Below are positions 6,263-38,450 of a stretch of 64,000 bases of DNA, in pieces. A program made the position numbers and the translations under genes. The DNA lies in assembly GCA_903813345.2 (NCBI GenBank), contig CAIIXF020000012.1, forward strand, positions 19,663,520 through 19,727,519, written 5' to 3'. This DNA comes from Owenia fusiformis (Eukaryota > Annelida > Polychaeta > Sabellida > Oweniidae). Every line of letters starts with the position of its first letter. Position 1 is the first letter of the stretch. Below the pieces are notes generated by a model. That model was not told the DNA's origin. It was given only the letters and a program-made list of their open reading frames with translations, and did no database searches.

Positions 6263-6428
6263 AAATTTTTGTTCATGTTATTTTAATGTTTATGTTTATG
6301 TAATTGAAACGTAGTATAAATAGAACGCAACATTCACACTAGCATGTATTTAATGTCTAGCGTCGTGAAATTCGAACGTGATTATGGACCATTTGGGAAA
6401 TAAGATATATTTGGAACTGATACCAGAC

Positions 6429-9033: not shown

Positions 9034-9063
9034 TATTTACATTCTTATGGCAGTGGAAAGACA

Positions 9064-10443: not shown

Positions 10444-10448
10444 CAGAC

Positions 10449-11173: not shown

Positions 11174-11457
11174 ACAACATGTTTTTATCTAGCACAGATG
11201 GTGAATCCCTGCGAAAAGACGGTCCTGTTGAAATCACATTTTTCTCTTGCAATCAGTTGCATCCCATTAGCAGGGGGCTACTCCCAGTACTATTTCAGTT
11301 CTACTTTTAATGGGGGAGGCCTCAAGTCACTTCACTTTTTTTAGTTTGAGCTGTGGTCTTATAGATTTTAGCTTGGGTTGCTTAATTCAAGTTTTTGGAA
11401 AGGTATTCCCTCGATAGTCTGTGTGTGGTGGGGGGCTACTTCCAGTAGGTCAATGAA

Positions 11458-11940
11458 ATACAATACAATACAATACAATACAAAACTATACAATACAATA
11501 CAATTCAATACAATACAATACTAAGCACTAGATCCATGATCTTGGTCATCTGGTTCGTTGGTTGTCTGGTTCGTTGGTTGTTTGGTTCGTTGGGTGGAGT
11601 GTTGGTTAGTTGGTTGATTAATTAGTTTATTGGTTGGTTAGTTTTAACCTATTGGGTGGTCTGGTGGTTGTCTGGTTGGTTAGTTGGTTAGTAAGTAAGT
11701 TGGTTGATTAGATTAAGCCTATTGGGTCATTGGTTGGTCGGTTGGATGTCAGGTAGGTTGGTTGGTTGTCTGGTTGTTTGACACCCCCCCCCCCAAGAAA
11801 AATTAACTGGAGTGATGACTTCCCAAAAACTTGAATTAAACAACCATGTCCACAATCAAAAGACCCACATCGCTCCATCAAATCCAACTCAACAATAAAA
11901 AGGTGACTTGAGACCCCCCCCCCATGAAATTAAACTGGAA
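11458..11940 (-). repeat. Inverted block, reverse complement of 36546-37049
   Basis: After the shared CTACTTCCAGTA at 11446-11457, the sequence runs as the reverse complement of 36546-37049. It starts GGTCAATGAAATACAATACA, passes through the (TACAA)n and TTGG-rich minisatellite, and ends AAATTAAACTGGAA. The right edge unit keeps the direct order. The block also faces the direct CCAA/TTGTA block at 12320-12700, making a large palindrome with arms of several hundred bases. Confidence 0.88.
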
Positions 11941-12917
11941 GTGCATCCCATTAGCAGGGGGGGGACTCCCAGTACTCTTCCAGTTTTCCTGCGGAAAGAC
12001 AGTCCTGTTGAAATCACATTTGTCTCCATTAGGGGACTAGGTTGAGTTTCAAGGACTTACAGTATATGTCGCATTTTGACCAGTATTATCTCTTGCAATC
12101 AGTTGCATCCCATTAGCAGGGGGGGGGGAACTCCCAGTAGTTTTTCAGTTTTCCTGCAGAAAGACAGTCCTGTTGAAATCACATTTGTCTCCATTAGGAG
12201 ACTAGGTTGAGTTTCAAGGACTTACTGTAGATGTCGCTTTTGACCAGTTTTTATCTCTTGCAATCAGTTGCATCCCATTAGCAGGGGGCTGCTCCCAGTA
12301 CTATTCTAGTTTTTCTTGGGGGGAAGTCAAACAACCAGACAACCAACCAGACAACCAACCAACCAACTTACCGAACATCCAACCGACCAACCAATGACCC
12401 AATAGGCTTAATCTATTAACTAACTTACTTACTAACCAACCAACTAACCAACCAGACAACCACCAGACCACCCAATAGGTTAAAACTAACCAACCAACTA
12501 ACTAATTAATCAACAAACTAATCAACACTCCATCCAACGAACCAAACAACCAACGAACCAGACAAGCAACGAACCAGACAAGCAACGAACCAGATGACCA
12601 AGATCATGGATCTAGTGCTTAGTATTGTATTGTATTGTATTGTATTGTATTGTATAGTTTTGTATTGTTTTGTTTTGTATTGTATTGTATTTCGTTGACC
12701 AGTACTTACTCAGTAATGATTCAATTTTAAAGTTGACTTCAAGTACTACTCCAGATCTAAATTTTGAAGGTCTGAAGTCTTGTGTTCATTTTAGCTACAG
12801 TTGTAGATTGAAGGGTCTTTTCTTTTGGGTTTTCATGTTAAAATTGTGGGCTTAGTTTCGGGGTTTCTTTCTTTTTAATTGAACCATCGCTGATCTTTTC
12901 CTTAAATGTACTTTCAG

Positions 12918-13889
12918 GTGCAGTCCTCTTGCCTTGGAGAGAACAGAAAGAACCACAAAGGGAAAACCACAGAGAATCTACAATTTGTGCTACCTACCTG
13001 CAGCATTTGTGATCTACATACCTCTTGCCTTGGAGAGAACAAAAAGAAACACAAAAGGAAAACCACAGAGAATCTGCAATTTGTGCTACCTATCTGCAGC
13101 ATTTATATCTACATACCATCTTGTTAAGGTACTGTAACACATAATCAGTTCTATCATTTGATGATTTTGCTCTCTGGTTCAGTACAGTTATTCCACAACG
13201 ACACATTTTTCAATTGTTGGGATTCTAATCCGATTGTTGGCACATGTATGTTTGGCAAACATTTTTTCTAAGAAATACACTAAAAGAGGACTGCCTTGAT
13301 TTCACTTAATGTACAGATGTACCATGAAGCCATGTTTCATTATTTTCACATGTGGTCTGTGTTCTTAAAGAATATACATATGCTCAACTATTCCATTCTT
13401 CCTACAGAGTTACATCTGCCCAAGCAGTTAGTTGACTTGATGATATAAATCTTGAGCCAGGAGGGGTATAAGGCTATGACAGATTTACTAGAGTCAATGA
13501 AAGGAATGTCTTTGCATTCCCTCCTCCGCTTGTATTGGAAGTGACTCGACCAAGTTGCATCCTTGTATTTTTCATTTTCTTATCTTGTATCTTTCAGGTA
13601 CAACTATGAGAGAGATGCAGCAAACACACCAAGTTAGGGCGATAGCTGGATCAGTCTTTCGACAACTTTGAACCATCATGTCCGGTCCACGTAAACAGTA
13701 TCATGGGCGAGAGGTGTTCGTGTTCCTGTCACCAAAGCACCAAAGTAAGTACATTTTTTTTTCTATTCAATTATTACAACAGGTTAGTTCCTCTGTTTTC
13801 AGGTTCCCTTTCAGCTTGGAGATGAGGAGCCCGATGACCAACGACACAACCGAGACAACAGCTGCGTTCCTGCGTTCCTGCTACCTAAG
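12918..13889 (+). pseudogene. Decayed exon block of unit 0
   Basis: The first block (12918-13128) follows a TACTTTCAG acceptor and contains an internal ~90-bp duplication. The second begins at 13408 after CTTCCTACAG. The third begins after CTTGTATCTTTCAG near 13598 and ends at a GTAAGT donor. The fourth begins after TCTGTTTTCAG near 13801 and ends at 13889. It carries the same in-frame stops as the other copies and lacks the later 14-bp duplication. Confidence 0.5.
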
Positions 13890-14339
13890 TTAAGTATTCC
13901 TTCCTGGTTTTGCATAGGGATGGGGGGCGCCTCCCAGTTTGATATTTACTTGTGGACTTTTGTTGGCCGACCCATATTTTTGGTGGAGAAACTTGGACTC
14001 TAAGGTAAAGTGGGAGGGGGGTGGTTGGGTTTCCGGGGGGATAGAGTTCATGTTTCAAAATCAAAAATATGGAAGTCTACTGGTTTATATCAAATTGGGA
14101 GAAATAAATTTTATCTTTTGTAATATTCTGTAAATTTTTAGTAGTGTAGTGTAAAGTATAGTGTAAAGTTTTATTTAAAGTTTTTATGTAAAGTTTTATG
14201 TAAGATAACAACTACTCCTACAACATGTTTTATCTATTTGTAGCACAGATGGTGAAGTCCCTGCGAAAAGACGGTCCTGTTGGAATCACATTTTTTCCAC
14301 GATGGGACTAGGTCAAGTTTCCAGGACTTACAGTAGATG

Positions 14340-15560
14340 TCGCATTTTCACCAGTTTTATCTCTTGCAATCAGTTGCATCCCATTAGAAGGGGGGGGGGG
14401 AACTCCCAGTACTATTCCAGTTTTCCTGCGGAATGACAGTCCTGTTGAAATCACATTTGTCTCCATTAGGGGACTAGGTTGAGTTTCAAGGACCTACCGT
14501 ACATGTCGCTCTGACCAGTTTTTATCTCTTGCAATCAATTGCATCCCATTAGCAGGGGGGGGGGGACTCCCAGTACTCTACCAGTTTTCCTGCAGAAAGA
14601 CAGTCCTGTTGAAATCACATTTGTCTCCATTAGGGGACTAGGTTGAGTTTCAAGGACTTACCGTAGATGTCGCTTTTGACCAGTTTTCATCTCTTGCAAT
14701 CAGTTGCATCCCATTAGCAGGGGGGGGGACTCCCAGTACTATTCCAGTTTTCGTGCGGAAGGACGGTCCTGTTGAAATCACATTTGTCTCCATTAGGGGA
14801 CTAGGTTGAGTTTCAAGGACCTACCGTACATGTCGCTCTGACCAGTTTTTATCTCTTGCAATCAATTGCATCCCATTAGCAGGGGGGGGGGGACTCCCAG
14901 TACTCTTCCAGTTTTCCTGCGGAAAGACAGTCCTGTTGAAATCACATTTGTCTCCATTAGGGGACTAGGTTGAGTTTCAAGGACTTACCGTAGATGTCGC
15001 TTTTGACCAGTTTTCATCTCTTGCAATCAGTTGCATCCAATTAGCAGGGGGGGGGGGGAACTCCCAGTACTATTCCAGTTTTCGTGCGGAAGGACGGTCC
15101 TGTTGAAATCACATTTGTCTCCATTAGGGGACTAGGTTGAGTTTCAAGGACCTACCGTACATGTCGCTCTGACCAGTTTTTATCTCTTGCAATCAATTGC
15201 ATCCCATTAGCAGGGGGGGGGACTCCCAGTACTCTTCCAGTTTTCCTGCGGAAAGACAGTCCTGTTGAAATCACATTTGTCTCCATTAGGGGACTAGGTT
15301 GAGTTTCAAGGACTTACAGTATATGTCGCATTTTGACCAGTATTATCTCTTGCAATCAGTTGCATCCCATTAGCAGGGGGGGGGGGGAACTCCCAGTAGT
15401 TTTTCAGTTTTCCTGCAGAAAGACAGTCCTGTTGAAATCACATTTGTCTCCATTAGGAGACCAGGTTGAGTTTCAAGGACTTACTGTAGATGTCGCTTTT
15501 GACCAGTTTTTATCTCTTGCAATCAGTTGCATCCCATTAGCAGGGGGCTTCTCCCAGTAC
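14340..15560 (+). repeat. Eight ~160-bp sub-repeats, each with a poly-G tract (representative)
   Basis: Each sub-repeat contains ATCTCTTGCAATCA(G/A)TTGCATCCCATTAGCA, a G run of about 7-13, (A)ACTCCCAGTACTnTTCCAGTTTT, CTGTTGAAATCACATTTGTCTCCATTAGG and GGTTGAGTTTCAAGGAC(T/C)TAC. Two alternating subtypes (CAATCAG then TTTTGACC, versus CAATCAATTG then CTCTGACC) suggest duplication in ~320-bp pairs. Equivalent arrays lie at about 17640-18840 (8), 20900-21780 (6), 23865-25070 (8), 27150-28360 (8), 30410-31290 (6) and 33365-34245 (6). Confidence 0.9.
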
Positions 15561-16191
15561 TATTCTAGTTTTTCTTGGGGGGAAGTCAAACAACCAGACA
15601 ACCAACCAGACAACCAACCAACCAACTTACCGAACATCCAACCGACCAACCAATGACCCAATAGGCTTAATCTATTAACTAACTTACTTACTAACCAACC
15701 AACTAACCAACCAGACAACCACCAGACCACCCAATAGGTTAAAACTAACCAACCAACTAACTAATTAATCAACAAACTAATCAACACTCCATCCAACGAA
15801 CCAAACAACCAACGAACCAGACAAGCAACGAACCAGACAAGCAACGAACCAGATGACCAAGATCATGGATCTAGTGCTTAGTATTGTATTGTATTGTATT
15901 GTATTGTATTGTATTGTATTGTATTGTATAGTTTTGTATTGTTTTGTTTTGTATTGTATTGTATTTCGTTGACCAGTACTTACTCAGTAATGATTCAATT
16001 TTAAAGTTGACTTCAAGTACTACTCCAGATCTAAATTTTGAAGGTCTGAAGTCTTGTGTTCATTTTAGCTACAGTTGTAGATTGAAGGGTCTTTTCTTTT
16101 GGGTTTTCATGTTAAAATTGTGGGCTTAGTTTCGGGGTTTCTTTCTTTTTAATTGAACCATCGCTGATCTTTTCCTTAAATGTACTTTCAG

Positions 16192-17178
16192 GTGCAGTCC
16201 TCTTGCCTTGGAGAGAACAGAAAGAACCACAAAGGGAAAACCACAAAGGGAAAACCACAGAGAATCTACAATTTGTGCTACCTACCTGCAGCATTTGTGA
16301 TCTACATACCTCTTGCCTTGGAGAGAACAAAAAGAAACACAAAAGGAAAACCACAGAGAATCTGCAATTTGTGCTACCTATCTGCAGCATTTATATCTAC
16401 ATACCATCTTGTTAAAGGTACTGTAACACATAATCAGTTCTATCATTTGATGATTTTGCTCTCTGGTTCAGTACAGTTATTCCACAACGACACATTTTTC
16501 AATTGTTGGGATTCTAATCCGATTGTTGGCACATGTATGTTTGGCAAACATTTTTTCTAAGAAATACACTAAAAGAGGACTGCCTTGATTTCACTTAATG
16601 TACAGATGTACCATGAAGCCATGTTTCATTATTTTCACATGTGGTCTGTGTTCTTAAAGAATATACATATGCTCAACTATTCCATTCTTCCTACAGAGTT
16701 ACATCTGCCCAAGCAGTTAGTTGACTTGATGATATAAATCTTGAGCCAGGAGGGGTATAAGGCTATGACAGATTTACTAGAGTCAATGAAAGGAATGTCT
16801 TTGCATTCCCTCCTCCGCTTGTATTGGAAGTGACTCGACCAAGTTGCATCCTTGTATTTTTCATTTTCTTTTCTTGTATCTTTCAGGTACAACTATGAGA
16901 GAGATGCAGCAAACACACCAAGTTAGGGCGATAGCTGGATCAGTCTTTCGACAACTTTGAGCCATCATGTCCGGTCCACGTAAACAGTATCATGGGCGAG
17001 AGGTGTTCGTGTTCCTGTCACCAAAGCACCAAAGTAAGTACATTTTTTTTTCTATTCAATTATTACAACAGGTTAGTTCCTCTGTTTTCAGGTTCCCTTT
17101 CAGCTTGGAGATGAGGAGCCCGATGACCAACGACACAACCGAGACAACAGCTGCGTTCCTGCGTTCCTGCTACCTAAG
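16192..17178 (+). pseudogene. Decayed multi-exon gene fragment (unit 1, representative)
   Basis: Four exon-like blocks with good splice signals are visible. Block 1 is 16192-16417, after TACTTTCAG. Block 2 is about 16697-16830, after CTTCCTACAG, and one frame reads LHLPKQLVDLMI, a stop, then ILSQEGYKAMTDLLESMKG and LHSLLRLYWK. Block 3 is 16887-17033, after TTGTATCTTTCAG and before GTAAGT; it reads REMQQTHQVRAIAGSVFRQL, a stop, then AIMSGPRKQYHGREVFVFLS. Block 4 is 17092-17178, after CTGTTTTCAG; one frame reads VPFQLGDEEPDDQ..NRDNSCVPAFLLPK. The composition looks protein-coding, but stops and phase breaks make it dead. Block 1 carries an internal duplication and resembles the exon at 38349-38450. 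The parent protein is not recognised. Confidence 0.5.
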
Positions 17179-17508
17179 TTAAGTATTCCTTCCTGGTTTT
17201 GCATAGGGATGGGGGGCGCCTCCCAGTTTGATATTTACTTGTGGACTTTTGTTGGCCGACCCATATTTTTGGTGGAGAAACTTGGACTCTAAGGTAAAGT
17301 GGGAGGGGGGTGGTTGGGTTTCCGGGGGGATAGAGTTCATGTTTCAAAATCAAAAATATGGAAGTCTACTGGTTTATATCAAATTGGGAGAAATAAATTT
17401 TATCTTTTGTAATATTCTGTAAATTTTTAGTAGTGTAGTGTAAAGTATAGTGTAAAGTTTTATTTAAAGTTTTTATGTAAAGTTTTATGTAAGATAACAA
17501 CTACTCCT

Positions 17509-20500
17509 ACAACATGTTTTATCTATTTGTAGCACAGATGGTGAAGTCCCTGCGAAAAGACGGTCCTGTTGGAATCACATTTTTTCCACGATGGGACTAG
17601 GTCAAGTTTCCAGGACTTACAGTAGATGTCGCATTTTCACCAGTTTTATCTCTTGCAATCAGTTGCATCCCATTAGAAGGGGGGGGGAACTCCCAGTACT
17701 ATTCCAGTTTTCCTGCGGAATGACAGTCCTGTTGAAATCACATTTGTCTCCATTAGGGGACTAGGTTGAGTTTCAAGGACCTACCGTACATGTCGCTCTG
17801 ACCAGTTTTTATCTCTTGCAATCAATTGCATCCCATTAGCAGGGGGGGGACTCCCAGTACTCTACCAGTTTTCCTGCAGAAAGACAGTCCTGTTGAAATC
17901 ACATTTGTCTCCATTAGGGGACTAGGTTGAGTTTCAAGGACTTACCGTAGATGTCGCTTTTGACCAGTTTTCATCTCTTGCAATCAGTTGCATCCCATTA
18001 GCAGGGGGGGGGGGACTCCCAGTACTATTCCAGTTTTCGTGCGGAAGGACGGTCCTGTTGAAATCACATTTGTCTCCATTAGGGGACTAGGTTGAGTTTC
18101 AAGGACCTACCGTACATGTCGCTCTGACCAGTTTTTATCTCTTGCAATCAATTGCATCCCATTAGCAGGGGGGGGGGACTCCCAGTACTCTTCCAGTTTT
18201 CCTGCGGAAAGACAGTCCTGTTGAAATCACATTTGTCTCCATTAGGGGACTAGGTTGAGTTTCAAGGACTTACCGTAGATGTCGCTTTTGACCAGTTTTC
18301 ATCTCTTGCAATCAGTTGCATCCCATTAGCAGGGGGGGGGGACTCCCAGTACTATTCCAGTTTTCGTGCGGAAGGACGGTCCTGTTGAAATCACATTTGT
18401 CTCCATTAGGGGACTAGGTTGAGTTTCAAGGACCTACCGTACATGTCGCTCTGACCAGTTTTTATCTCTTGCAATCAATTGCATCCCATTAGCAGGGGGG
18501 GGGACTCCCAGTACTCTTCCAGTTTTCCTGCGGAAAGACAGTCCTGTTGAAATCACATTTGTCTCCATTAGGGGACTAGGTTGAGTTTCAAGGACTTACA
18601 GTATATGTCGCATTTTGACCAGTATTATCTCTTGCAATCAGTTGCATCCCATTAGCAGGGGGGGGAACTCCCAGTAGTTTTTCAGTTTTCCTGCAGAAAG
18701 ACAGTCCTGTTGAAATCACATTTGTCTCCATTAGGAGACCAGGTTGAGTTTCAAGGACTTACTGTAGATGTCGCTTTTGACCAGTTTTTATATCTTGCAA
18801 TCAGTTGCATCCCATTAGCAGGGGGCTGCTCCCAGTACTATTCTAGTTTTTCTTGGGGGGAAGTCAAACAACCAGACAACCAACCAGACAACCAACCAAC
18901 CAACTTACCGAACATCCAACCGACCAACCAATGACCCAATAGGCTTAATCTATTAACTAACTTACTTACTAACCAACCAACTAACCAACCAGACAACCAC
19001 CAGACCACCCAATAGGTTAAAACTAACCAACCAACTAACTAATTAATCAACAAACTAATCAACACTCCATCCAACGAACCAAACAACCAACGAACCAGAC
19101 AAGCAACGAACCAGACAAGCAACGAACCAGATGACCAAGATCATGGATCTAGTGCTTAGTATTGTATTGTATTGTATTGTATTGTATAGTTTTGTATTGT
19201 TTTGTTTTGTATTGTATTGTATTTCGTTGACCAGTACTTACTCAGTAATGATTCAATTTTAAAGTTGACTTCAAGTACTACTCCAGATCTAAATTTTGAA
19301 GGTCTGAAGTCTTGTGTTCATTTTAGCTACAGTTGTAGATTGAAGGGTCTTTTCTTTTGGGTTTTCATGTTAAAATTGTGGGCTTAGTTTCGGGGTTTCT
19401 TTCTTTTTAATTGAACCATCGCTGATCTTTTCCTTAAATGTACTTTCAGGTGCAGTCCTCTTGCCTTGGAGAGAACAGAAAGAACCACAAAGGGAAAACC
19501 ACAAAGGGAAAACCACAGAGAATCTACAATTTGTGCTACCTACCTGCAGCATTTGTGATCTACATACCTCTTGCCTTGGAGAGAACAAAAAGAAACACAA
19601 AAGGAAAACCACAGAGAATCTGCAATTTGTGCTACCTATCTGCAGCATTTATATCTACATACCATCTTGTTAAAGGTACTGTAACACATAATCAGTTCTA
19701 TCATTTGATGATTTTGCTCTCTGGTTCAGTACAGTTATTCCACAACGACACATTTTTCAATTGTTGGGATTCTAATCCGATTGTTGGCACATGTATGTTT
19801 GGCAAACATTTTTTCTAAGAAATACACTAAAAGAGGACTGCCTTGATTTCACTTAATGTACAGATGTACCATGAAGCCATGTTTCATTATTTTCACATGT
19901 GGTCTGTGTTCTTTAAGAATATACATATGCTCAACTATTCCATTCTTCCTACAGAGTTACATCTGCCCAAGCAGTTAGTTGACTTGATGATATAAATCTT
20001 GAGCCAGGAGGGGTATAAGGCTATGACAGATTTACTAGAGTCAATGAAAGGAATGTCTTTGCATTCCCTCCTCCGCTTGTATTGGAAGTGACTCGACCAA
20101 GTTGCATCCTTGTATTTTTCATTTTCTTATCTTGTATCTTTCAGGTACAACTATGAGAGAGATGCAGCAAACACACCAAGTTAGGGCGATAGCTGGATCA
20201 GTCTTTCGACAACTTTGAGCGATCATGTCCGGTCCACGTAAACAGTATCATGGGCGAGAGGTGTTCGTGTTCCTGTCACCAAAGCACCAAAGTAAGTACA
20301 TTTTTTTTTCTATTCAATTATTACAACAGGTTAGTTCCTCTGTTTTCAGGTTCCCTTTCAGCTTGGAGATGAGGAGCCCGATGACCAACGACACAACCGA
20401 GACAACAGCTGCTTTCCTGCGTTCCTGCTACCTAAGTTAAGTATTCCTTCCTGGTTTTGCATAGGGATGGGGGGCGCCTCCCAGTTTGATATTTACTTGT

Positions 20501-20766
20501 GGACTTTTGTTGGCCGACCCATATTTTTGGTGGAGAAACTTGGACTCTAAGGTAAAGTGGGAGGGGGGTGGTTGGGTTTCCGGGGGGATAGAGTTCATGT
20601 TTCAAAATCAAAAATATGGAAGTCTACTGGTTTATATCAAATTGGGAGAAATAAATTTTATCTTTTGTAATATTCTGTAAATTTTTAGTAGTGTAGTGTA
20701 AAGTATAGTGTAAAGTTTTATTTAAAGTTTTTATGTAAAGTTTTATGTAAGATAACAACTACTCCT
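17509..20766 (+). repeat. Array unit 2 (3258 bp, higher-order type b)
   Basis: Same order of parts as unit 1, with eight sub-repeats. Variants shared only with unit 5 include TATATCTTGCAATC, GTTCTTTAAGAATATAC, GAGCGATCATG and GCTGCTTTCCTGCG. Confidence 0.9.
19450..20436 (+). pseudogene. Decayed exon block of unit 2
   Basis: Near-identical copy of the 16192-17178 fragment, with both shared in-frame stops. It carries the type-b changes GAGCGATC before the ATG and GCTTTCC in the fourth block. Confidence 0.5.
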
Positions 20767-23728
20767 ACAACATGTTTTATCTATTTGTAGCACAGATGGT
20801 GAAGTCCCTGCGAAAAGACGGTCCTGTTGGAATCACATTTTTTCCACGAGGGGACTAGGTCAAGTTTCCAGGACTTACAGTAGATGTCGCATTTTCACCA
20901 GTTTTATCTCTTGCAATCAGTTGCATCCCATTAGAAGGGGGGGGGGGGGAACTCCCAGTACTATTCCAGTTTTGGTGCGGAAGGACAGTCCTGTTGAAAT
21001 CACATTTGTCTCCATTAGGGGACTAGGTTGAGTTTCAAGGACCTACCGTACATGTCGCTCTGACCAGTTTTTATCTCTTGCAATCAATTGCATCCCATTA
21101 GCAGGGGGGGACTCCCAGTACTCTTCCAGTTTTCCTGCGGAAAGACAGTCCTGTTGAAATCACATTTGTCTCCATTAGGGGACTAGGTTGAGTTTCAAGG
21201 ACTTACCGTAGATGTCGCTTTTGACCAGTTTTCATCTCTTGCAATCAGTTGCATCCCATTAGCAGGGGGGGGGGAACTCCCAGTACTATTCCAGTTTTCG
21301 TGCGGAAGGACGGTCCTGTTGAAATCACATTTGTCTCCATTAGAGGACTAGGTTGAGTTTCAAGGACCTACCGTACATGTCGCTCTGACCAGTTTTTATC
21401 TCTTGCAATCAATTGCATCCCATTAGCATGGGGGGGGGACTCCCAGTACTCTTCCAGTTTTCCTGCGGAAAGACAGTCCTGTTGAAATCACATTTGTCTC
21501 CATTAGGGGACTAGGTTGAGTTTCAAGGACTTACAGTATATGTCGCATTTTGACCAGTATTATCTCTTGCAATCAGTTGCATCCCATTAGCAGGGGGGGG
21601 GGAACTCCCAGTAGTTTTTCAGTTTTCCTGCAGAAAGACAGTCCTGTTGAAATCACATTTGTCTCCATTAGGAGACTAGGTTGAGTTTCAAGGACTTACT
21701 GTAGATGTCGCTTTTGACCAGTTTTTATCTCTTGCAATCAGTTGCATCCCATTAGCAGGGGGCTGCTCCCAGTACTATTCTAGTTTTTCTTGGGGGGAAG
21801 TCAAACAACCAGACAACCAACCAGACAACCAACCAACCAACCAGACAACCAACCAACCAACTTACCGAACATCCAACCGACCAACCAATGACCCAATAGG
21901 CTTAATCTATTAACTAACTTACTTACTAACCAACCAACTAACCAACCAGACAACCACCAGACCACCCAATAGGTTAAAACTAACCAACCAACTAACTAAT
22001 TAATCAACAAACTAATCAACACTCCATCCAACGAACCAAACAACCAACGAACCAGACAAGCAACGAACCAGACAAGCAACGAACCAGATGACCAAGATCA
22101 TGGATCTAGTGCTTAGTATTGTATTGTATTGTATTGTATTGTATTGTATAGTTTTGTATTGTTTTGTTTTGTATTGTATTGTATTTCGTTGACCAGTACT
22201 TACTCAGTAATGATTCAATTTTAAAGTTGACTTCAAGTACTACTCCAGATCTAAATTTTGAAGGTCTGAAGTCTTGTGTTCATTTTAGCTACAGTTGTAG
22301 ATTGAAGGGTCTTTTCTTTTGGGTTTTCATGTTAAAATTGTGGGCTTAGTTTCGGGGTTTCTTTCTTTTTAATTGAACCATCGCTGATCTTTTCCTTAAA
22401 TGTACTTTCAGGTGCAGTCCTCTTGCCTTGGAGAGAACAGAAAGAACCACAAAGGGAAAACCACAAAGGGAAAACCACAGAGAATCTACAATTTGTGCTA
22501 CCTACCTGCAGCATTTGTGATCTACATACCTCTTGCCTTGGAGAGAACAAAAAGAAACACAAAAGGAAAACCACAGAGAATCTGCAATTTGTGCTACCTA
22601 TCTGCAGCATTTATATCTACATACCATCTTGTTAAAGGTACTGTAACACATAATCAGTTCTATCATTTGATGATTTTGCTCTCTGGTTCAGTACAGTTAT
22701 TCCACAACGACACATTTTTCAATTGTTGGGATTCTAATCCGATTGTTGGCACATGTATGTTTGGCAAACATTTTTTCTAAGAAATACACTAAAAGAGGAC
22801 TGCCTTGATTTCACTTAATGTACAGATGTACCATGAAGCCATGTTTCATTATTTTCACATGTGGTCTGTGTTCTTAAAGAATATACATATGCTCAACTAT
22901 TCCATTCTTCCTACAGAGTTACATCTGCCCAAGCAGTTAGTTGACTTGATGATATAAATCTTGAGCCAGGAGGGGTATAAGGCTATGACAGATTTACTAG
23001 AGTCAATGAAAGGAATGTCTTTGCATTCCCTCCTCCGCTTGTATTGGAAGTGACTCGACCAAGTTGCATCCTTGTATTTTTCATTTTCTTATCTTGTATC
23101 TTTCAGGTACAACTATGAGAGAGATGCAGCAAACACACCAAGTTAGGGCGATAGCTGGATCAGTCTTTCGACAACTTTGAGCCATCATGTCCGGTCCACG
23201 TAAACAGTATCATGGGCGAGAGGTGTTCGTGTTCCTGTCACCAAAGCACCAAAGTAAGTACATTTTTTTTTCTATTCAATTATTACAACAGGTTAGTTCC
23301 TCTGTTTTCAGGTTCCCTTTCAGCTTGGAGATGAGGAGCCCGATGACCAACGACACAACCGAGACAACAGCTGCGTTCCTGCGTTCCTGCTACCTAAGTT
23401 AAGTATTCCTTCCTGGTTTTGCATAGGGATGGGGGGCGCCTCCCAGTTTGATATTTACTTGTGGACTTTTGTTGGCCGACCCATATTTTTGGTGGAGAAA
23501 CTTGGACTCTAAGGTAAAGTGGGAGGGGGGTGGTTGGGTTTCCGGGGGGATAGAGTTCATGTTTCAAAATCAAAAATATGGAAGTCTACTGGTTTATATC
23601 AAATTGGGAGAAATAAATTTTATCTTTTGTAATATTCTGTAAATTTTTAGTAGTGTAGTGTAAAGTATAGTGTAAAGTTTTATTTAAAGTTTTTATGTAA
23701 AGTTTTATGTAAGATAACAACTACTCCT
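20767..23728 (+). repeat. Array unit 3 (2962 bp, higher-order type c)
   Basis: Shorter because it has six sub-repeats instead of eight. The minisatellite has an extra ACCAACCAACCAGACAACC block. Variants shared with units 6 and 7 include CCACGAGGGGACTAGG and CCAGTTTTGGTGCGGAAGG; TAGCATGGGGG is shared with unit 6. Confidence 0.9.
22412..23398 (+). pseudogene. Decayed exon block of unit 3
   Basis: Near-identical copy of the 16192-17178 fragment with the same in-frame stops and splice-like signals. Confidence 0.5.
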
Positions 23729-26700
23729 ACAACATGTTTTATCTATTTGTAGCACAGATGGTGAAGTCCCTGCGAAAAGACGGTCCTGTTGGAATCACAT
23801 TTTTTCCACGATGGGACTAGGTCAAGTTTCCAGGACTTACAGTAGATGTCGCATTTTCACCAGTTTTATCTCTTGCAATCAGTTGCATCCCATTAGAAGG
23901 GGGGGGGGAACTCCCAGTACTATTCCAGTTTTCCTGCGGAATGACAGTCCTGTTGAAATCACATTTGTCTCCATTAGGGGACTAGGTTGAGTTTCAAGGA
24001 CCTACCGTACATGTCGCTCTGACCAGTTTTTATCTCTTGCAATCAATTGCATCCCATTAGCAGGGGGGGGGGGGACTCCCAGTACTCTACCAGTTTTCCT
24101 GCAGAAAGACAGTCCTGTTGAAATCACATTTGTCTCCATTAGGGGACTAGGTTGAGTTTCAAGGACTTACCGTAGATGTCGCTTTTGACCAGTTTTCATC
24201 TCTTGCAATCAGTTGCATCCCATTAGCAGGGGGGGGGACTCCCAGTACTATTCCAGTTTTCGTGCGGAAGGACGGTCCTGTTGAAATCACATTTGTCTCC
24301 ATTAGGGGACTAGGTTGAGTTTCAAGGACCTACCGTACATGTCGCTCTGACCAGTTTTTATCTCTTGCAATCAATTGCATCCCATTAGCAGGGGGGGGGG
24401 ACTCCCAGTACTCTTCCAGTTTTCCTGCGGAAAGACAGTCCTGTTGAAATCACATTTGTCTCCATTAGGGGACTAGGTTGAGTTTCAAGGACTTACCGTA
24501 GATGTCGCTTTTGACCAGTTTTCATCTCTTGCAATCAGTTGCATCCAATTAGCAGGGGGGGGGGAACTCCCAGTACTATTCCAGTTTTCGTGCGGAAGGA
24601 CGGTCCTGTTGAAATCACATTTGTCTCCATTAGGGGACTAGGTTGAGTTTCAAGGACCTACCGTACATGTCGCTCTGACCAGTTTTTATCTCTTGCAATC
24701 AATTGCATCCCATTAGCAGGGGGGGGGGACTCCCAGTACTCTTCCAGTTTTCCTGCGGAAAGACAGTCCTGTTGAAATCACATTTGTCTCCATTAGGGGA
24801 CTAGGTTGAGTTTCAAGGACTTACAGTATATGTCGCATTTTGACCAGTATTATCTCTTGCAATCAGTTGCATCCCATTAGCAGGGGGGGGGGGAACTCCC
24901 AGTAGTTTTTCAGTTTTCCTGCAGAAAGACAGTCCTGTTGAAATCACATTTGTCTCCATTAGGAGACCAGGTTGAGTTTCAAGGACTTACTGTAGATGTC
25001 GCTTTTGACCAGTTTTTATCTCTTGCAATCAGTTGCATCCCATTAGCAGGGGGCTTCTCCCAGTACTATTCTAGTTTTTCTTGGGGGGAAGTCAAACAAC
25101 CAGACAACCAACCAGACAACCAACCAACCAACTTACCGAACATCCAACCGACCAACCAATGACCCAATAGGCTTAATCTATTAACTAACTTACTTACTAA
25201 CCAACCAACTAACCAACCAGACAACCACCAGACCACCCAATAGGTTAAAACTAACCAACCAACTAACTAATTAATCAACAAACTAATCAACACTCCATCC
25301 AACGAACCAAACAACCAACGAACCAGACAAGCAACGAACCAGACAAGCAACGAACCAGATGACCAAGATCATGGATCTAGTGCTTAGTATTGTATTGTAT
25401 TGTATTGTATTGTATTGTATTGTATTGTATTGTATAGTTTTGTATTGTTTTGTTTTGTATTGTATTGTATTTCGTTGACCAGTACTTACTCAGTAATGAT
25501 TCAATTTTAAAGTTGACTTCAAGTACTACTCCAGATCTAAATTTTGAAGGTCTGAAGTCTTGTGTTCATTTTAGCTACAGTTGTAGATTGAAGGGTCTTT
25601 TCTTTTGGGTTTTCATGTTAAAATTGTGGGCTTAGTTTCGGGGTTTCTTTCTTTTTAATTGAACCATCGCTGATCTTTTCCTTAAATGTACTTTCAGGTG
25701 CAGTCCTCTTGCCTTGGAGAGAACAGAAAGAACCACAAAGGGAAAACCACAAAGGGAAAACCACAGAGAATCTACAATTTGTGCTACCTACCTGCAGCAT
25801 TTGTGATCTACATACCTCTTGCCTTGGAGAGAACAAAAAGAAACACAAAAGGAAAACCACAGAGAATCTGCAATTTGTGCTACCTATCTGCAGCATTTAT
25901 ATCTACATACCATCTTGTTAAAGGTACTGTAACACATAATCAGTTCTATCATTTGATGATTTTGCTCTCTGGTTCAGTACAGTTATTCCACAACGACACA
26001 TTTTTCAATTGTTGGGATTCTAATCCGATTGTTGGCACATGTATGTTTGGCAAACATTTTTTCTAAGAAATACACTAAAAGAGGACTGCCTTGATTTCAC
26101 TTAATGTACAGATGTACCATGAAGCCATGTTTCATTATTTTCACATGTGGTCTGTGTTCTTAAAGAATATACATATGCTCAACTATTCCATTCTTCCTAC
26201 AGAGTTACATCTGCCCAAGCAGTTAGTTGACTTGATGATATAAATCTTGAGCCAGGAGGGGTATAAGGCTATGACAGATTTACTAGAGTCAATGAAAGGA
26301 ATGTCTTTGCATTCCCTCCTCCGCTTGTATTGGAAGTGACTCGACCAAGTTGCATCCTTGTATTTTTCATTTTCTTTTCTTGTATCTTTCAGGTACAACT
26401 ATGAGAGAGATGCAGCAAACACACCAAGTTAGGGCGATAGCTGGATCAGTCTTTCGACAACTTTGAGCCATCATGTCCGGTCCACGTAAACAGTATCATG
26501 GGCGAGAGGTGTTCGTGTTCCTGTCACCAAAGCACCAAAGTAAGTACATTTTTTTTTCTATTCAATTATTACAACAGGTTAGTTCCTCTGTTTTCAGGTT
26601 CCCTTTCAGCTTGGAGATGAGGAGCCCGATGACCAACGACACAACCGAGACAACAGCTGCGTTCCTGCGTTCCTGCTACCTAAGTTAAGTATTCCTTCCT

Positions 26701-27014
26701 GGTTTTGCATAGGGATGGGGGGCGCCTCCCAGTTTGATATTTACTTGTGGACTTTTGTTGGCCGACCCATATTTTTGGTGGAGAAACTTGGACTCTAAGG
26801 TAAAGTGGGAGGGGGGTGGTTGGGTTTCCGGGGGGATAGAGTTCATGTTTCAAAATCAAAAATATGGAAGTCTACTGGTTTATATCAAATTGGGAGAAAT
26901 AAATTTTATCTTTTGTAATATTCTGTAAATTTTTAGTAGTGTAGTGTAAAGTATAGTGTAAAGTTTTATTTAAAGTTTTTATGTAAAGTTTTATGTAAGA
27001 TAACAACTACTCCT
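23729..27014 (+). repeat. Array unit 4 (3286 bp, type a)
   Basis: Matches unit 1 base for base over long stretches. The visible differences are mainly poly-G and TTGTA run lengths. Has eight sub-repeats and carries GCATCCAATTAGC and CTTTTCTTGTATC as in unit 1. Confidence 0.9.
25698..26684 (+). pseudogene. Decayed exon block of unit 4
   Basis: Near-identical copy of the 16192-17178 fragment, same stops. It shares the CTTTTCTTGTATCTTTCAG acceptor variant with unit 1. Confidence 0.5.
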
Positions 27015-30000
27015 ACAACATGTTTTATCTATTTGTAGCACAGATGGTGAAGTCCCTGCGAAAAGACGGTCCTGTTGGAATCACATTTTTTCCACGATGG
27101 GACTAGGTCAAGTTTCCAGGACTTACAGTAGATGTCGCATTTTCACCAGTTTTATCTCTTGCAATCAGTTGCATCCCATTAGAAGGGGGGGGGGAACTCC
27201 CAGTACTATTCCAGTTTTCCTGCGGAATGACAGTCCTGTTGAAATCACATTTGTCTCCATTAGGGGACTAGGTTGAGTTTCAAGGACCTACCGTACATGT
27301 CGCTCTGACCAGTTTTTATCTCTTGCAATCAATTGCATCCCATTAGCAGGGGGGGGGACTCCCAGTACTCTACCAGTTTTCCTGCAGAAAGACAGTCCTG
27401 TTGAAATCACATTTGTCTCCATTAGGGGACTAGGTTGAGTTTCAAGGACTTACCGTAGATGTCGCTTTTGACCAGTTTTCATCTCTTGCAATCAGTTGCA
27501 TCCCATTAGCAGGGGGGGGGGACTCCCAGTACTATTCCAGTTTTCGTGCGGAAGGACGGTCCTGTTGAAATCACATTTGTCTCCATTAGGGGACTAGGTT
27601 GAGTTTCAAGGACCTACCGTACATGTCGCTCTGACCAGTTTTTATCTCTTGCAATCGATTGCATCCCATTAGCAGGGGGGGGGGGACTCCCAGTACTCTT
27701 CCAGTTTTCCTGCGGAAAGACAGTCCTGTTGAAATCACATTTGTCTCCATTAGGGGACTAGGTTGAGTTTCAAGGACTTACCGTAGATGTCGCTTTTGAC
27801 CAGTTTTCATCTCTTGCAATCAGTTGCATCCCATTAGCAGGGGGGGGGGACTCCCAGTACTATTCCAGTTTTCGTGCGGAAGGACGGTCCTGTTGAAATC
27901 ACATTTGTCTCCATTAGGGGACTAGGTTGAGTTTCAAGGACCTACCGTACATGTCGCTCTGACCAGTTTTTATCTCTTGCAATCAATTGCATCCCATTAG
28001 CAGGGGGGGGGGGGACTCCCAGTACTCTTCCAGTTTTCCTGCGGAAAGACAGTCCTGTTGAAATCACATTTGTCTCCATTAGGGGACTAGGTTGAGTTTC
28101 AAGGACTTACAGTATATGTCGCATTTTGACCAGTATTATCTCTTGCAATCAGTTGCATCCCATTAGCAGGGGGGGGAACTCCCAGTAGTTTTTCAGTTTT
28201 CCTGCAGAAAGACAGTCCTGTTGAAATCACATTTGTCTCCATTAGGAGACCAGGTTGAGTTTCAAGGACTTACTGTAGATGTCGCTTTTGACCAGTTTTT
28301 ATATCTTGCAATCAGTTGCATCCCATTAGCAGGGGGCTGCTCCCAGTACTATTCTAGTTTTTCTTGGGGGGAAGTCAAACAACCAGACAACCAACCAGAC
28401 AACCAACCAACCAACTTACCGAACATCCAACCGACCAACCAATGACCCAATAGGCTTAATCTATTAACTAACTTACTTACTAACCAACCAACTAACCAAC
28501 CAGACAACCACCAGACCACCCAATAGGTTAGAACTAACCAACCAACTAACTAATTAATCAACAAACTAATCAACACTCCATCCAACGAACCAAACAACCA
28601 ACGAACCAGACAAGCAACGAACCAGACAAGCAACGAACCAGATGACCAAGATCATGGATCTAGTGCTTAGTATTGTATTGTATTGTATTGTATTGTATAG
28701 TTTTGTATTGTTTTGTTTTGTATTGTATTGTATTTCGTTGACCAGTACTTACTCAGTAATGATTCAATTTTAAAGTTGACTTCAAGTACTACTCCAGATC
28801 TAAATTTTGAAGGTCTGAAGTCTTGTGTTCATTTTAGCTACAGTTGTAGATTGAAGGGTCTTTTCTTTTGGGTTTTCATGTTAAAATTGTGGGCTTAGTT
28901 TCGGGGTTTCTTTCTTTTTAATTGAACCATCGCTGATCTTTTCCTTAAATGTACTTTCAGGTGCAGTCCTCTTGCCTTGGAGAGAACAGAAAGAACCACA
29001 AAGGGAAAACCACAAAGGGAAAACCACAGAGAATCTACAATTTGTGCTACCTACCTGCAGCATTTGTGATCTACATACCTCTTGCCTTGGAGAGAACAAA
29101 AAGAAACACAAAAGGAAAACCACAGAGAATCTGCAATTTGTGCTACCTATCTGCAGCATTTATATCTACATACCATCTTGTTAAAGGTACTGTAACACAT
29201 AATCAGTTCTATCATTTGATGATTTTGCTCTCTGGTTCAGTACAGTTATTCCACAACGACACATTTTTCAATTGTTGGGATTCTAATCCGATTGTTGGCA
29301 CATGTATGTTTGGCAAACATTTTTTCTAAGAAATACACTAAAAGAGGACTGCCTTGATTTCACTTAATGTACAGATGTACCATGAAGCCATGTTTCATTA
29401 TTTTCACATGTGGTCTGTGTTCTTTAAGAATATACATATGCTCAACTATTCCATTCTTCCTACAGAGTTACATCTGCCCAAGCAGTTAGTTGACTTGATG
29501 ATATAAATCTTGAGCCAGGAGGGGTATAAGGCTATGACAGATTTACTAGAGTCAATGAAAGGAATGTCTTTGCATTCCCTCCTCCGCTTGTATTGGAAGT
29601 GACTCGACCAAGTTGCATCCTTGTATTTTTCATTTTCTTATCTTGTATCTTTCAGGTACAACTATGAGAGAGATGCAGCAAACACACCAAGTTAGGGCGA
29701 TAGCTGGATCAGTCTTTCGACAACTTTGAGCGATCATGTCCGGTCCACGTAAACAGTATCATGGGCGAGAGGTGTTCGTGTTCCTGTCACCAAAGCACCA
29801 AAGTAAGTACATTTTTTTTTCTATTCAATTATTACAACAGGTTAGTTCCTCTGTTTTCAGGTTCCCTTTCAGCTTGGAGATGAGGAGCCCGATGACCAAC
29901 GACACAACCGAGACAACAGCTGCTTTCCTGCGTTCCTGCTACCTAAGTTAAGTATTCCTTCCTGGTTTTGCATAGGGATGGGGGGCGCCTCCCAGTTTGA

Positions 30001-30277
30001 TATTTACTTGTGGACTTTTGTTGGCCGACCCATATTTTTGGTGGAGAAACTTGGACTCTAAGGTAAAGTGGGAGGGGGGTGGTTGGGTTTCCGGGGGGAT
30101 AGAGTTCATGTTTCAAAATCAAAAATATGGAAGTCTACTGGTTTATATCAAATTGGGAGAAATAAATTTTATCTTTTGTAATATTCTGTAAATTTTTAGT
30201 AGTGTAGTGTAAAGTATAGTGTAAAGTTTTATTTAAAGTTTTTATGTAAAGTTTTATGTAAGATAACAACTACTCCT
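27015..30277 (+). repeat. Array unit 5 (3263 bp, type b)
   Basis: Counterpart of unit 2 with eight sub-repeats and all type-b variants. Private changes include CAATCGATTG near 27655 and TAGGTTAGAAC near 28525, which show the second higher-order copy is not a pure text duplicate of the first. Confidence 0.9.
28961..29947 (+). pseudogene. Decayed exon block of unit 5
   Basis: Near-identical copy of the 19450-20436 fragment, with type-b GAGCGATC and GCTTTCC variants and the same stops. Confidence 0.5.
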
Positions 30278-33232
30278 ACAACATGTTTTATCTATTTGTA
30301 GCACAGATGGTGAAGTCCCTGCGAAAAGACGGTCCTGTTGGAATCACATTTTTTCCACGAGGGGACTAGGTCAAGTTTCCAGGACTTACAGTAGATGTCG
30401 CATTTTCACCAGTTTTATCTCTTGCAATCAGTTGCATCCCATTAGAAGGGGGGGGGAACTCCCAGTACTATTCCAGTTTTGGTGCGGAAGGACAGTCCTG
30501 TTGAAATCACATTTGTCTCCATTAGGGGACTAGGTTGAGTTTCAAGGACCTACCGTACATGTCGCTCTGACCAGTTTTTATCTCTTGCAATCAATTGCAT
30601 CCCATTAGCAGGGGGGGACTCCCAGTACTCTTCCAGTTTTCCTGCGGAAAGACAGTCCTGTTGAAATCACATTTGTCTCCATTAGGGGACTAGGTTGAGT
30701 TTCAAGGACTTACCGTAGATGTCGCTTTTGACCAGTTTTCATCTCTTGCAATCAGTTGCATCCCATTAGCAGGGGGGGGGGGAACTCCCAGTACTATTCC
30801 AGTTTTCGTGCGGAAGGACGGTCCTGTTGAAATCACATTTGTCTCCATTAGAGGACTAGGTTGAGTTTCAAGGACCTACCGTACATGTCGCTCTGACCAG
30901 TTTTTATCTCTTGCAATCAATTGCATCCCATTAGCATGGGGGGGGGACTCCCAGTACTCTTCCAGTTTTCCTGCGGAAAGACAGTCCTGTTGAAATCACA
31001 TTTGTCTCCATTAGGGGACTAGGTTGAGTTTCAAGGACTTACAGTATATGTCGCATTTTGACCAGTATTATCTCTTGCAATCAGTTGCATCCCATTAGCA
31101 GGGGGGGGGGGAACTCCCAGTAGTTTTTCAGTTTTCCTGCAGAAAGACAGTCCTGTTGAAATCACATTTGTCTCCATTAGGAGACTAGGTTGAGTTTCAA
31201 GGACTTACTGTAGATGTCGCTTTTGACCAGTTTTTATCTCTTGCAATCAGTTGCATCCCATTAGCAGGGGGCTGCTCCCAGTACTATTCTAGTTTTTCTT
31301 GGGGGGAAGTCAAACAACCAGACAACCAACCAGACAACCAACCAACCAACCAGACAACCAACCAACCAACTTACCGAACATCCAACCGACCAACCAATGA
31401 CCCAATAGGCTTAATCTATTAACTAACTTACTTACTAACCAACCAACTAACCAACCAGACAACCACCAGACCACCCAATAGGTTAAAACTAACCAACCAA
31501 CTAACTAATTAATCAACAAACTAATCAACACTCCATCCAACGAACCAAACAACCAACGAACCAGACAAGCAACGAACCAGACAAGCAACGAACCAGATGA
31601 CCAAGATCATGGATCTAGTGCTTAGTATTGTATTGTATTGTATTGTATTGTATAGTTTTGTATTGTTTTGTTTTGTATTGTATTGTATTTCGTTGACCAG
31701 TACTTACTCAGTAATGATTCAATTTTAAAGTTGACTTCAAGTACTACTCCAGATCTAAATTTTGAAGGTCTGAAGTCTTGTGTTCATTTTAGCTACAGTT
31801 GTAGATTGAAGGGTCTTTTCTTTTGGGTTTTCATGTTAAAATTGTGGGCTTAGTTTCGGGGTTTCTTTCTTTTTAATTGAACCATCGCTGATCTTTTCCT
31901 TAAATGTACTTTCAGGTGCAGTCCTCTTGCCTTGGAGAGAACAGAAAGAACCACAAAGGGAAAACCACAAAGGGAAAACCACAGAGAATCTACAATTTGT
32001 GCTACCTACCTGCAGCATTTGTGATCTACATACCTCTTGCCTTGGAGAGAACAAAAAGAAACACAAAAGGAAAACCACAGAGAATCTGCAATTTGTGCTA
32101 CCTATCTGCAGCATTTATATCTACATACCATCTTGTTAAAGGTACTGTAACACATAATCAGTTCTATCATTTGATGATTTTGCTCTCTGGTTCAGTACAG
32201 TTATTCCACAACGACACATTTTTCAATTGTTGGGATTCTAATCCGATTGTTGGCACATGTATGTTTGGCAAACATTTTTTCTAAGAAATACACTAAAAGA
32301 GGACTGCCTTGATTTCACTTAATGTACAGATGTACCATGAAGCCATGTTTCATTATTTTCACATGTGGTCTGTGTTCTTAAAGAATATACATATGCTCAA
32401 CTATTCCATTCTTCCTACAGAGTTACATCTGCCCAAGCAGTTAGTTGACTTGATGATATAAATCTTGAGCCAGGAGGGGTATAAGGCTATGACAGATTTA
32501 CTAGAGTCAATGAAAGGAATGTCTTTGCATTCCCTCCTCCGCTTGTATTGGAAGTGACTCGACCAAGTTGCATCCTTGTATTTTTCATTTTCTTATCTTG
32601 TATCTTTCAGGTACAACTATGAGAGAGATGCAGCAAACACACCAAGTTAGGGCGATAGCTGGATCAGTCTTTCGACAACTTTGAGCCATCATGTCCGGTC
32701 CACGTAAACAGTATCATGGGCGAGAGGTGTTCGTGTTCCTGTCACCAAAGCACCAAAGTAAGTACATTTTTTTTTCTATTCAATTATTACAACAGGTTAG
32801 TTCCTCTGTTTTCAGGTTCCCTTTCAGCTTGGAGATGAGGAGCCCGATGACCAACGACACAACCGAGACAACAGCTGCGTTCCTGCGTTCCTGCTACCTA
32901 AGTTAAGTATTCCTTCCTGGTTTTGCATAGGGATGGGGGGCGCCTCCCAGTTTGATATTTACTTGTGGACTTTTGTTGGCCGACCCATATTTTTGGTGGA
33001 GAAACTTGGACTCTAAGGTAAAGTGGGAGGGGGGTGGTTGGGTTTCCGGGGGGATAGAGTTCATGTTTCAAAATCAAAAATATGGAAGTCTACTGGTTTA
33101 TATCAAATTGGGAGAAATAAATTTTATCTTTTGTAATATTCTGTAAATTTTTAGTAGTGTAGTGTAAAGTATAGTGTAAAGTTTTATTTAAAGTTTTTAT
33201 GTAAAGTTTTATGTAAGATAACAACTACTCCT
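30278..33232 (+). repeat. Array unit 6 (2955 bp, type c)
   Basis: Counterpart of unit 3: six sub-repeats, extra CCAA minisatellite block, and the TAGCATGGGGG and CCACGAGGGGACTAGG variants. Confidence 0.9.
31916..32902 (+). pseudogene. Decayed exon block of unit 6
   Basis: Near-identical copy of the 22412-23398 fragment, same stops. Confidence 0.5.
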
Positions 33233-38348: not shown

Positions 38349-38450
38349 GCTCACTCCTCTTATCTTGGACTTGAGAACATTTGTGCAACATGTCTGCAGC
38401 ATCTATATTATATACTATCTTGCCATGCACTTGCCATTGACAAAAGATGA
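38349..38450 (+). CDS. Possible terminal exon, relative of the array exon block 1
   Basis: Starts after a strong acceptor (TTTCCTTTTTATTTTCAG) and reads 33 codons, AHSSYLGLENICATC...HALAIDKR, to a TGA. The first two-thirds align with exon block 1 of the array once an A-rich ~38-bp insertion in the array copies is removed (array: CLGEN then CATYLQHLY; here LGLENICATCLQHLYYIL). This copy has no internal stop, and an AATAAA lies 394 bp downstream. It may be the last exon of the source gene or another remnant. The protein is not recognised. Confidence 0.35.
   Translation, partial: AHSSYLGLENICATCLQHLYYILSCHALAIDKR

What the first reader, a model, noticed from the sequence alone, without database searches (positions are those of the whole stretch)
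14220..33232. Two near-identical copies of a 9.5-kb three-unit higher-order repeat
Seen: units of 3289/3258/2962 bp are followed by 3286/3263/2955 bp, and rare variants recur in the same order 9.50-9.51 kb apart (15036/24543, 18790/28300, 21427/30933, 19910/29421, 20218/29728). Differences are mostly poly-G and TTGTA run lengths, plus a few private substitutions (27655, 28525). Higher-order structure is familiar from centromeric satellites but unusual for 3-kb gene-derived units. It implies a very recent 9.5-kb tandem duplication, or an assembly duplicate of allelic copies.
Basis: seen in the sequence. Interest (0 to 1): 0.75.

Follow-up and report, generated by a model that had tools for sequence, protein, structure and literature searches.

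The report
Recent three-unit duplication in macrosatellite array
A block of three roughly 3,000-base repeats appears to have been duplicated in tandem very recently; it lies in an array that forms the inner part of one of several dozen related, gene-like but apparently non-coding loci, mostly on two chromosomes of an animal, probably a marine worm.

Summary
Units of 3289/3258/2962 bp and 3286/3263/2955 bp differ by 0, 2 and 0 substitutions over 3284, 3257 and 2953 aligned bases; the rest is length of 14 of 22 poly-G tracts and one GTATT unit. At a 9.5-kb shift near-identity runs from 13,673 to 23,811 and breaks on both sides, as one unequal exchange between homologous units would leave it. The order is c-ABC-ABC-C'. 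A three-unit period could be tested in three other arrays and was absent there (p 0.18, 0.57, 0.73), so I read it as a local event, not as a centromere-type higher-order satellite.

The array is the middle of a dispersed locus: a promoter-like 5' block at 38 listed places (20 on C12, 14 on C2), followed in 30 of 38 by a matching 3' block on the same strand within 6-34 kb (0 with strands flipped, 0 with order reversed, 2.2 on average at random). Three unit or edge ORFs gave no protein domain. I read it as a macrosatellite inside a non-coding transcription-unit-like locus. Reads and RNA could not be tested, so an assembly artefact stays possible. The genome is probably Owenia fusiformis.

The parts
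14220..23728 (+). first copy of the 9.5-kb block (units A, B, C = U1 14220-17508, U2 17509-20766, U3 20767-23728)
23729..33232 (+). second copy of the 9.5-kb block (U4 23729-27014, U5 27015-30277, U6 30278-33232)
   Evidence: 0, 2 and 0 substitutions against U1, U2, U3
13673..23811 (+). tract equal to 23182-33315 except 2 substitutions, 14 poly-G tracts and one GTATT unit; the exchange lies in its overhang of about 630 bp, or about 1.2 kb if the U0 base at 13672 is a later change
11939..14219 (+). U0, partial unit of C type at the left edge of the array
   Evidence: 2 substitutions against U3 and 2 against U6
33233..36198 (+). U7, diverged C-type unit (C')
   Evidence: 9 substitutions against U6
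36199..37714 (+). U8, truncated edge unit of the older type
   Evidence: 95.6% (36199-36396) and 90.6% (36703-37714) to U1; a marker in it recurs at about 2.46-kb spacing in C12 arrays
11174..11447 (+). left edge: forward fragment matching 36199-36542
   Evidence: 89-96%
11448..11938 (-). left edge: inverted fragment matching about 37049-36546
   Evidence: 97% over 488 bp;
14260..15572 (+). 164-bp minisatellite inside each unit, arranged as alternating dimers of about 328 bp (example: unit U1)
10444..10729 (+). conserved 5' core of the locus, promoter-like (ATTGGTCAAT, CACGTG 35 bp downstream, TATA-like stretch)
   Evidence: 37 further places, 83-98% over the best stretch; alignment
5901..6428 (+). 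5' part of the locus upstream of the transposon, homologous to the same part of another locus
   Evidence: 84% to L056
6429..10443 (.). DNA transposon inserted into the 5' part (67-bp inverted ends, CAGAC on both sides); not part of the locus family
37715..40395 (+). 3' block of the locus with splice-acceptor-like TTTTCAG/GCTCACTCC (about 38341) and AATAAA at 38844
   Evidence: 37 further entries for 37715-38915 (counted); extent and alignment

Best explanation
The two 9.5-kb blocks arose by one recent unequal homologous exchange (or replication slippage with the same outcome) that duplicated three adjacent units of a macrosatellite-like array. The earlier array was c-A-B-C-C'; pairing of the U0/A boundary with the C/C' boundary and a crossover inside unit homology (about 0.6-1.2 kb) gave c-A-B-C-A-B-C-C'. 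The array is the expandable inner part of one of several dozen paralogous loci (38 5' blocks listed), which tend to have a promoter-like 5' block, a variable run of 2.0-3.3 kb units holding splice-site-like sequences, and a 3' block with an acceptor-like site and AATAAA. I infer that these are non-coding transcription units whose repeated inner part grows and shrinks by exchange, with homogenisation mainly within each chromosome. Shown: the duplication pattern, the tract ends, the paired 5' and 3' blocks, the chromosome-specific variants. Inferred: transcription, splicing, lack of coding function, exchange as the mechanism.
For: Tract of 10,139 bp with 2 substitutions at the 9.5-kb shift, against 2 substitutions and 37 bp of indels in the 1.7 kb to its left (2 bases at the very edge not counted) and 7 substitutions in the first 300 bp to its right. 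The excess over 9,507 bp is what a crossover inside homologous sequence leaves. Lag-3 period in this array (p 0.006) but not in the three others that allowed the test (p 0.18, 0.57, 0.73). A 30-mer of the unit occurs 360 times (177 +, 183 -). 38 5' blocks and 38 3' entries; 30 of 38 pair on the same strand at 5.9-33.6 kb, with 0 for flipped strands, 0 for reversed order, and a mean of 2.2 (maximum 8) in 2,000 random placements. Chromosome-specific variants: one site G in 25 of 25 C12 units of the newer type and C in 23 of 23 C2 units; a CTC insertion in 22 of 25 against 0 of 23. No Pfam domain at its cut-off in the three unit or edge ORFs searched; stops in all three frames of an exon-like stretch; a first ORF of 22 codons is altered or broken in several loci.
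Against: No reads, so the second copy is not proven to be in the animal. No RNA, so transcription is not shown; promoter and splice motifs are recalled patterns. 14 of 22 poly-G tracts differ in length between the copies while only 2 bases differ elsewhere, which may mean poly-G errors in the assembly. The left end of the tract rests on a base private to U0. U0 against U3 is also close (2 substitutions in 2.28 kb), so an earlier exchange of similar kind is likely and a strictly single event is a simplification. Only three other arrays allowed the lag-3 test. 8 of 38 5' blocks had no 3' partner in the lists, which hold only the best-scored candidates.
Confidence: 0.72

Rival explanations
1. The second 9.5-kb block is an assembly artefact: the assembler walked round the repeat once too often, or placed two haplotypes in tandem.
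For: Copies nearly identical; poly-G lengths are the main difference. If the genome is Owenia fusiformis it was assembled from PacBio reads with Canu and purged of haplotigs (passages of PMC9977687), a method that can miscount repeats.
Against: Two private substitutions and one 5-bp unit separate the copies. The same paper gives read N50 of 25.75-30.75 kb and 170.07 Gb of reads, long enough to span 19 kb. An allelic insert would be expected to differ more outside poly-G and to bring along flanking sequence (inference).
Confidence: 0.15
2. A homogenised higher-order satellite of centromeric type, in which A-B-C is a standing unit amplified as a block.
For: Nested periods of 164 bp, 328 bp, about 3 kb and 9.5 kb; the arrays listed lie in the middle part of two chromosomes.
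Against: No lag-3 period in the three other arrays that allowed the test (four shorter ones allowed lags 1-2 at most); only two copies here; A, B and C differ by 0.25-1.06% only; arrays are short and lie about 0.2 Mb apart, and in this window ORFs with NACHT and ABC-transporter-like matches lie within 30 kb of the array.
Confidence: 0.07
3. Block gene conversion: a second, older set of three units was overwritten by the first.
For: Would also give a limited identity tract.
Against: Needs a conversion tract over 9.5 kb and an array of the same unit order beforehand; the simple duplication explains the same tract ends.
Confidence: 0.04
4. The units are coding exons of a repetitive protein gene.
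For: Stop-free frames up to 126 codons in the unit and splice-like sites.
Against: The exon-like stretch at about 16887-17033 has stops in all three frames (read from 16889); frame-breaking 14-bp and 8-bp indels between units; no Pfam match at its cut-off for the three unit or edge ORFs searched.
Confidence: 0.06

Closest known systems
Human macrosatellites DXZ4, D4Z4, SST1 (PMC3018141, passages seen; other papers by search listing)
   Same: Tandem units of 2.4-3.3 kb that tend to be specific to one or two chromosomes; SST1 copies are more alike within an array than between arrays; D4Z4 has a polyadenylation signal just distal to the array; DXZ4 and SST1 have ORFs without known protein relatives.
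   Different: Here many short arrays (up to about 15 units in those listed) are spread over about 6 Mb on each of two chromosomes, with recurring 5' and 3' blocks around them; copy-number variation and expression are not tested.
FIRRE lncRNA locus with local repeats (PMC4820808, passages seen)
   Same: A transcription unit whose exons and introns hold repeated segments; FIRRE's RRD repeat covers 7 of 13 human exons.
   Different: FIRRE repeats occur mainly at one locus; here several dozen paralogous loci share them, the units are head-to-tail tandems, and no RNA is shown.
Alpha-satellite higher-order repeats (recalled)
   Same: Several distinct monomers recur as a block.
   Different: Only two block copies, monomers 98.8-99.8% alike, units of 3 kb, no lag-3 period in the three other arrays tested.

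Membership tests
Macrosatellite | head-to-tail units of several kb | tested here: met
Macrosatellite | specific to one or two chromosomes | tested here: inconclusive
   34 of 38 5' blocks on C12 and C2, but also C5 (2), C11 (1) and small C509 (1); list limited to best-scored candidates
Macrosatellite | copies more alike within an array or chromosome than between | tested here: met
   fixed differences between C12 and C2 units; nearest unit on the other chromosome for 3 of 57 units (distances rough)
Macrosatellite | copy number varies between individuals | not testable with these tools
   one assembly only
Higher-order satellite | block of several monomers repeated many times with low divergence between blocks | tested here: not met
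   two blocks only; no lag-3 period in three other arrays
Higher-order satellite | located at the functional centromere | not testable with these tools
   no CENP-A or Hi-C data
lncRNA with repeated exons (FIRRE-like) | conserved promoter-like start and polyadenylation-like end around the repeats | tested here: met
   sequence motifs only, recalled; activity untested
lncRNA with repeated exons (FIRRE-like) | spliced transcript containing the repeats | not testable with these tools
   no RNA data

The most novel reading that the evidence does not exclude
The loci form a chromosome-restricted set of non-coding, repeat-bearing transcription units, spaced about 0.2 Mb apart and pointing towards the chromosome middle, that work together as an architectural or recognition signal for two specific chromosomes (as DXZ4 and FIRRE do for the X, or pairing-centre repeats in nematodes; the latter recalled), with unit number tuned by exchanges such as the one in this window.
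Probability: 0.08. Interest if true: 0.85.

Novelty: new variant of a known kind. Interest (0 to 1): 0.5.

Why it matters
The 9.5-kb duplication is a clean snapshot of how multi-unit blocks arise in long tandem arrays: the exchange can be narrowed to about 0.6-1.2 kb. The wider point is the family: several dozen macrosatellite loci with recurring promoter-like and 3' blocks, concentrated in the middle part of two chromosomes, with inward orientation and chromosome-specific variants. That gives a testable system for concerted evolution and for asking whether macrosatellites act on chromosome structure outside mammals. My paper searches for Owenia with 'satellite' (4 papers) and for annelid with higher-order repeat and satellite DNA (1 paper) listed no paper that describes it, judged by titles and abstract starts.

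Tried and rejected
Coding content: Pfam on three unit or edge ORFs (16180-16557, 37156-37473, 16961-17179) gave nothing at a curated cut-off, two sub-threshold matches (E 0.025 and 0.048) and none for the third. RNA families: none at the gathering score in the window. tRNA: none (bacterial settings). Linkage of the arrays to the NACHT gene: rejected, of 23 matches in the genome only the window's own is full-length. Extension of the locus upstream: 4300-5550 matched other dispersed places and no array locus among its 40 scored candidates. A pattern for the older unit type was wrongly derived and found nothing; the corrected one is. The alignment starts inside the GTATT run and gives spurious distances for some window units (it shows U3 and U6 apart); supersede it. 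A conservation profile of older against newer units showed no clear exon signature. The sigma-70 scan is not meaningful for a eukaryote. Identity of the genome: among the 20 of 525 contigs looked at, C1-C12 are 31.9-62.2 Mb and C13-C20 under 0.7 Mb; 12 homeobox matches lie at C1 17.97-18.96 Mb on the largest; the paper's 12 scaffolds and Hox cluster on chromosome 1 (passages) fit Owenia fusiformis, but 498 Mb against 505.8 Mb is not exact, so it is probable only. Age: 2 substitutions in 9,494 aligned sites; with recalled invertebrate rates of a few 1e-9 per site and generation this is of the order of tens of thousands of generations (inference, wide error). Rows dropped before counts: I left out one 5' entry on C6 that matched only the inner part of the query and one short 3' match on C5 (145 bp); two 3' entries on C2 (12.879 and 12.883 Mb) may be one locus.
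Full report
What was checked. Self-comparison and alignment of the units give U1 14220-17508, U2 17509-20766, U3 20767-23728, U4 23729-27014, U5 27015-30277, U6 30278-33232. Substitution counts are 0 of 3284 (U1/U4), 2 of 3257 (U2/U5) and 0 of 2953 (U3/U6), against 8 (U1/U2), 29 (U1/U3) and 9 (U6/U7). The differences between the blocks are 14 of 22 poly-G tract lengths, one GTATT unit and substitutions at 18150/27657 and 19020/28531.

Shape of the duplication. When the sequence is aligned to itself at the 9.5-kb shift, near-identity runs from 13673 to 23811, 10,139 bp. To the left, U0 and U3 differ by 2 substitutions and 37 bp of indels in 1.7 kb (2 bases at the very edge not counted); to the right, U4 and U7 differ at 23812 and at six more sites in the next 300 bp. 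A tandem duplication of about 9,507 bp made by exchange inside homologous sequence leaves an identity tract longer than the block by the length of the shared homology, here about 630 bp. One caution: the base that ends the tract on the left (13672) is found in U0 alone among the copies compared, so it may be a later change; the tract would then start at about 13127 and the overhang be about 1.2 kb. U0 is a partial C-type unit and U7 a diverged C, so the order is c-A-B-C-A-B-C-C', and the likely earlier array was c-A-B-C-C'. The closeness of U0 to C suggests that an exchange of a similar kind happened before.

Inner levels. Each unit holds 164-bp monomers with a poly-G run. Inside the run, alternate monomers differ by 0-1.9% and neighbours by 5.5-7.5%; the first and last monomers are further apart. 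So there are nested periods of 164, 328, about 3,000 and 9,507 bp. Type C has six monomer starts instead of eight.

Is it a property of the family? I fetched seven other arrays (one, on C2 at 11.51 Mb, only in part) and compared units within each. As I ran it, the lag-3 test was possible in three of them, with 8, 8 and 14 units: p 0.18, 0.57 and 0.73. The window array gives p = 0.006 (20,000 shuffles, uncorrected). The other four arrays, with 4 or 5 units, allowed lags 1 and 2 at most; there lag 1 in the array at C12 19.79 Mb came out low (p = 0.016), where old and new unit types lie side by side. So the higher-order look is, as far as tested, one local event.

The family. The window is C12:19663520-19727519 of a 498-Mb genome; of the 20 contigs looked at, 12 are chromosome-size. 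A 30-mer of the unit with up to 3 mismatches occurs 360 times, 177 forward and 183 reverse; the output lists the first 100, all on C2. Spacing differs by array: about 2.03 kb (C2 17.62-17.64 Mb), 2.46 kb (C12) and mostly 2.9-3.3 kb in the others fetched. The subtype of this window, tested by a 43-mer with at most 1 mismatch, is found 24 times in four arrays between C12 19.68 and 20.44 Mb (C2 copies follow at 2 mismatches). In 57 units cut from the arrays three classes appear: an older class (9 units, mostly 2.4-2.5 kb), a C12 class (25) and a C2 class (23). One site is G in 25 of 25 and C in 23 of 23; a CTC insertion is in 22 of 25 and 0 of 23. This is concerted evolution mainly within chromosomes, though 3 of 57 units have their nearest relative on the other one (distances rough).

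The locus around the array. The 1.2 kb right of the array (37715-38915) has 37 further entries, 70-89% alike over their main stretch, many of them just downstream of arrays. The 0.76 kb left of it, next to a transposon, has relatives at 37 further places, 83-98% alike over the best stretch, which in most is the first 286 bp. In 30 of 38 a 3' block follows on the same strand within 40 kb (observed 5.9-33.6 kb, median 21.3 kb). With strands flipped the count is 0, with the 3' block upstream it is 0, and with random positions inside the spans it averages 2.2 (maximum 8 in 2,000). Eight 5' blocks have no partner; both lists hold only the best-scored candidates and are lower bounds. One C6 entry and one short C5 match were left out, and two 3' entries on C2 may be one locus.

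What the blocks look like. Of 18 aligned 5' cores, 17 hold ATTGGTCAAT (the other starts after that point), 15 hold CACGTG, 35 bp downstream each time, and 16 match my TATA-like pattern. The names of these elements are recalled and no promoter activity is shown. In the 3' block, five of five aligned loci keep TTTTCAG/GCTCACTCC and three keep AATAAA in line with 38844; of the other two, one sequence ends earlier and one carries other sequence there. Homology to one other locus runs on to about 40395. Upstream, 5901-6428 still matches another locus, while 4300-5550 matched no array locus among its 40 scored candidates. The units hold splice-site-like sequences, but an exon-like stretch (about 16887-17033) has stops in all frames, the three unit or edge ORFs searched had no Pfam match at its cut-off, and a 22-codon ORF after the TATA-like stretch is altered or broken in several of 18 loci. 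The most likely reading is a non-coding transcription unit.

Orientation. Taking the 5' blocks in order, C12 reads +++++++++-+--------- and C2 reads +++++--+-+---- (Mann-Whitney p = 0.0002 and 0.011; similar with arrays, p 0.0005 and 0.001, where the lists were put together by hand from truncated outputs). Left-hand loci mostly point right and right-hand loci mostly point left on both chromosomes, a pattern that does not depend on which way the chromosome is written. Old inversions or copying of neighbours could produce runs of this kind, so the p-values, which treat loci as independent, overstate the case.

Artefact question. If the genome is Owenia fusiformis (12 scaffolds, 505.8 Mb, Hox cluster on chromosome 1: passages of PMC9977687; here 12 large contigs among 20 looked at, 498 Mb in all, 12 homeobox matches at 17.97-18.96 Mb of the largest), reads had an N50 of 25.75-30.75 kb and 170.07 Gb in all, enough to span the two blocks.

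Comparison. By unit size, tandem order and concentration on two chromosomes it works like a macrosatellite (definition seen in passages of PMC3018141); variation between individuals and expression are untested. It does not meet the many-copy feature of higher-order centromeric satellites. The plan of 5' block, array and 3' block resembles FIRRE (passages) in anatomy only.

Noticed in passing
6429-10443: A 4.0-kb DNA transposon with 67-bp inverted ends and CAGAC on both sides, holding a 1.6-kb CTTC-type array and an AACG-type array; its last 464 bp are 98-100% alike at 36 further listed places on many contigs.
   Followed up: partly
11448-11938: About 490 bp of the older edge unit lie inverted at the left edge of the array, 97% to the right edge.
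   Followed up: partly
50304-52841 (-): 846-codon open frame with DUF4062 and NACHT/NPHP3-type matches, one full-length place in the genome.
   Followed up: partly
C2:17618916-17640122 of G000: A run of the same family with a shorter spacing of about 2.03 kb.
   Followed up: no
14390, 14555, 14882 and further poly-G tracts: 14 of 22 poly-G tracts differ in length between the block copies although only 2 bases differ elsewhere: fast mutation or assembly error.
   Followed up: no
60697-61311 (+): ORF with a weak match to an ABC-transporter TMD0 domain, below its cut-off.
   Followed up: no
41801-42697 (+) and 57333-58520 (-): Reverse-transcriptase pieces of retroelements.
   Followed up: no
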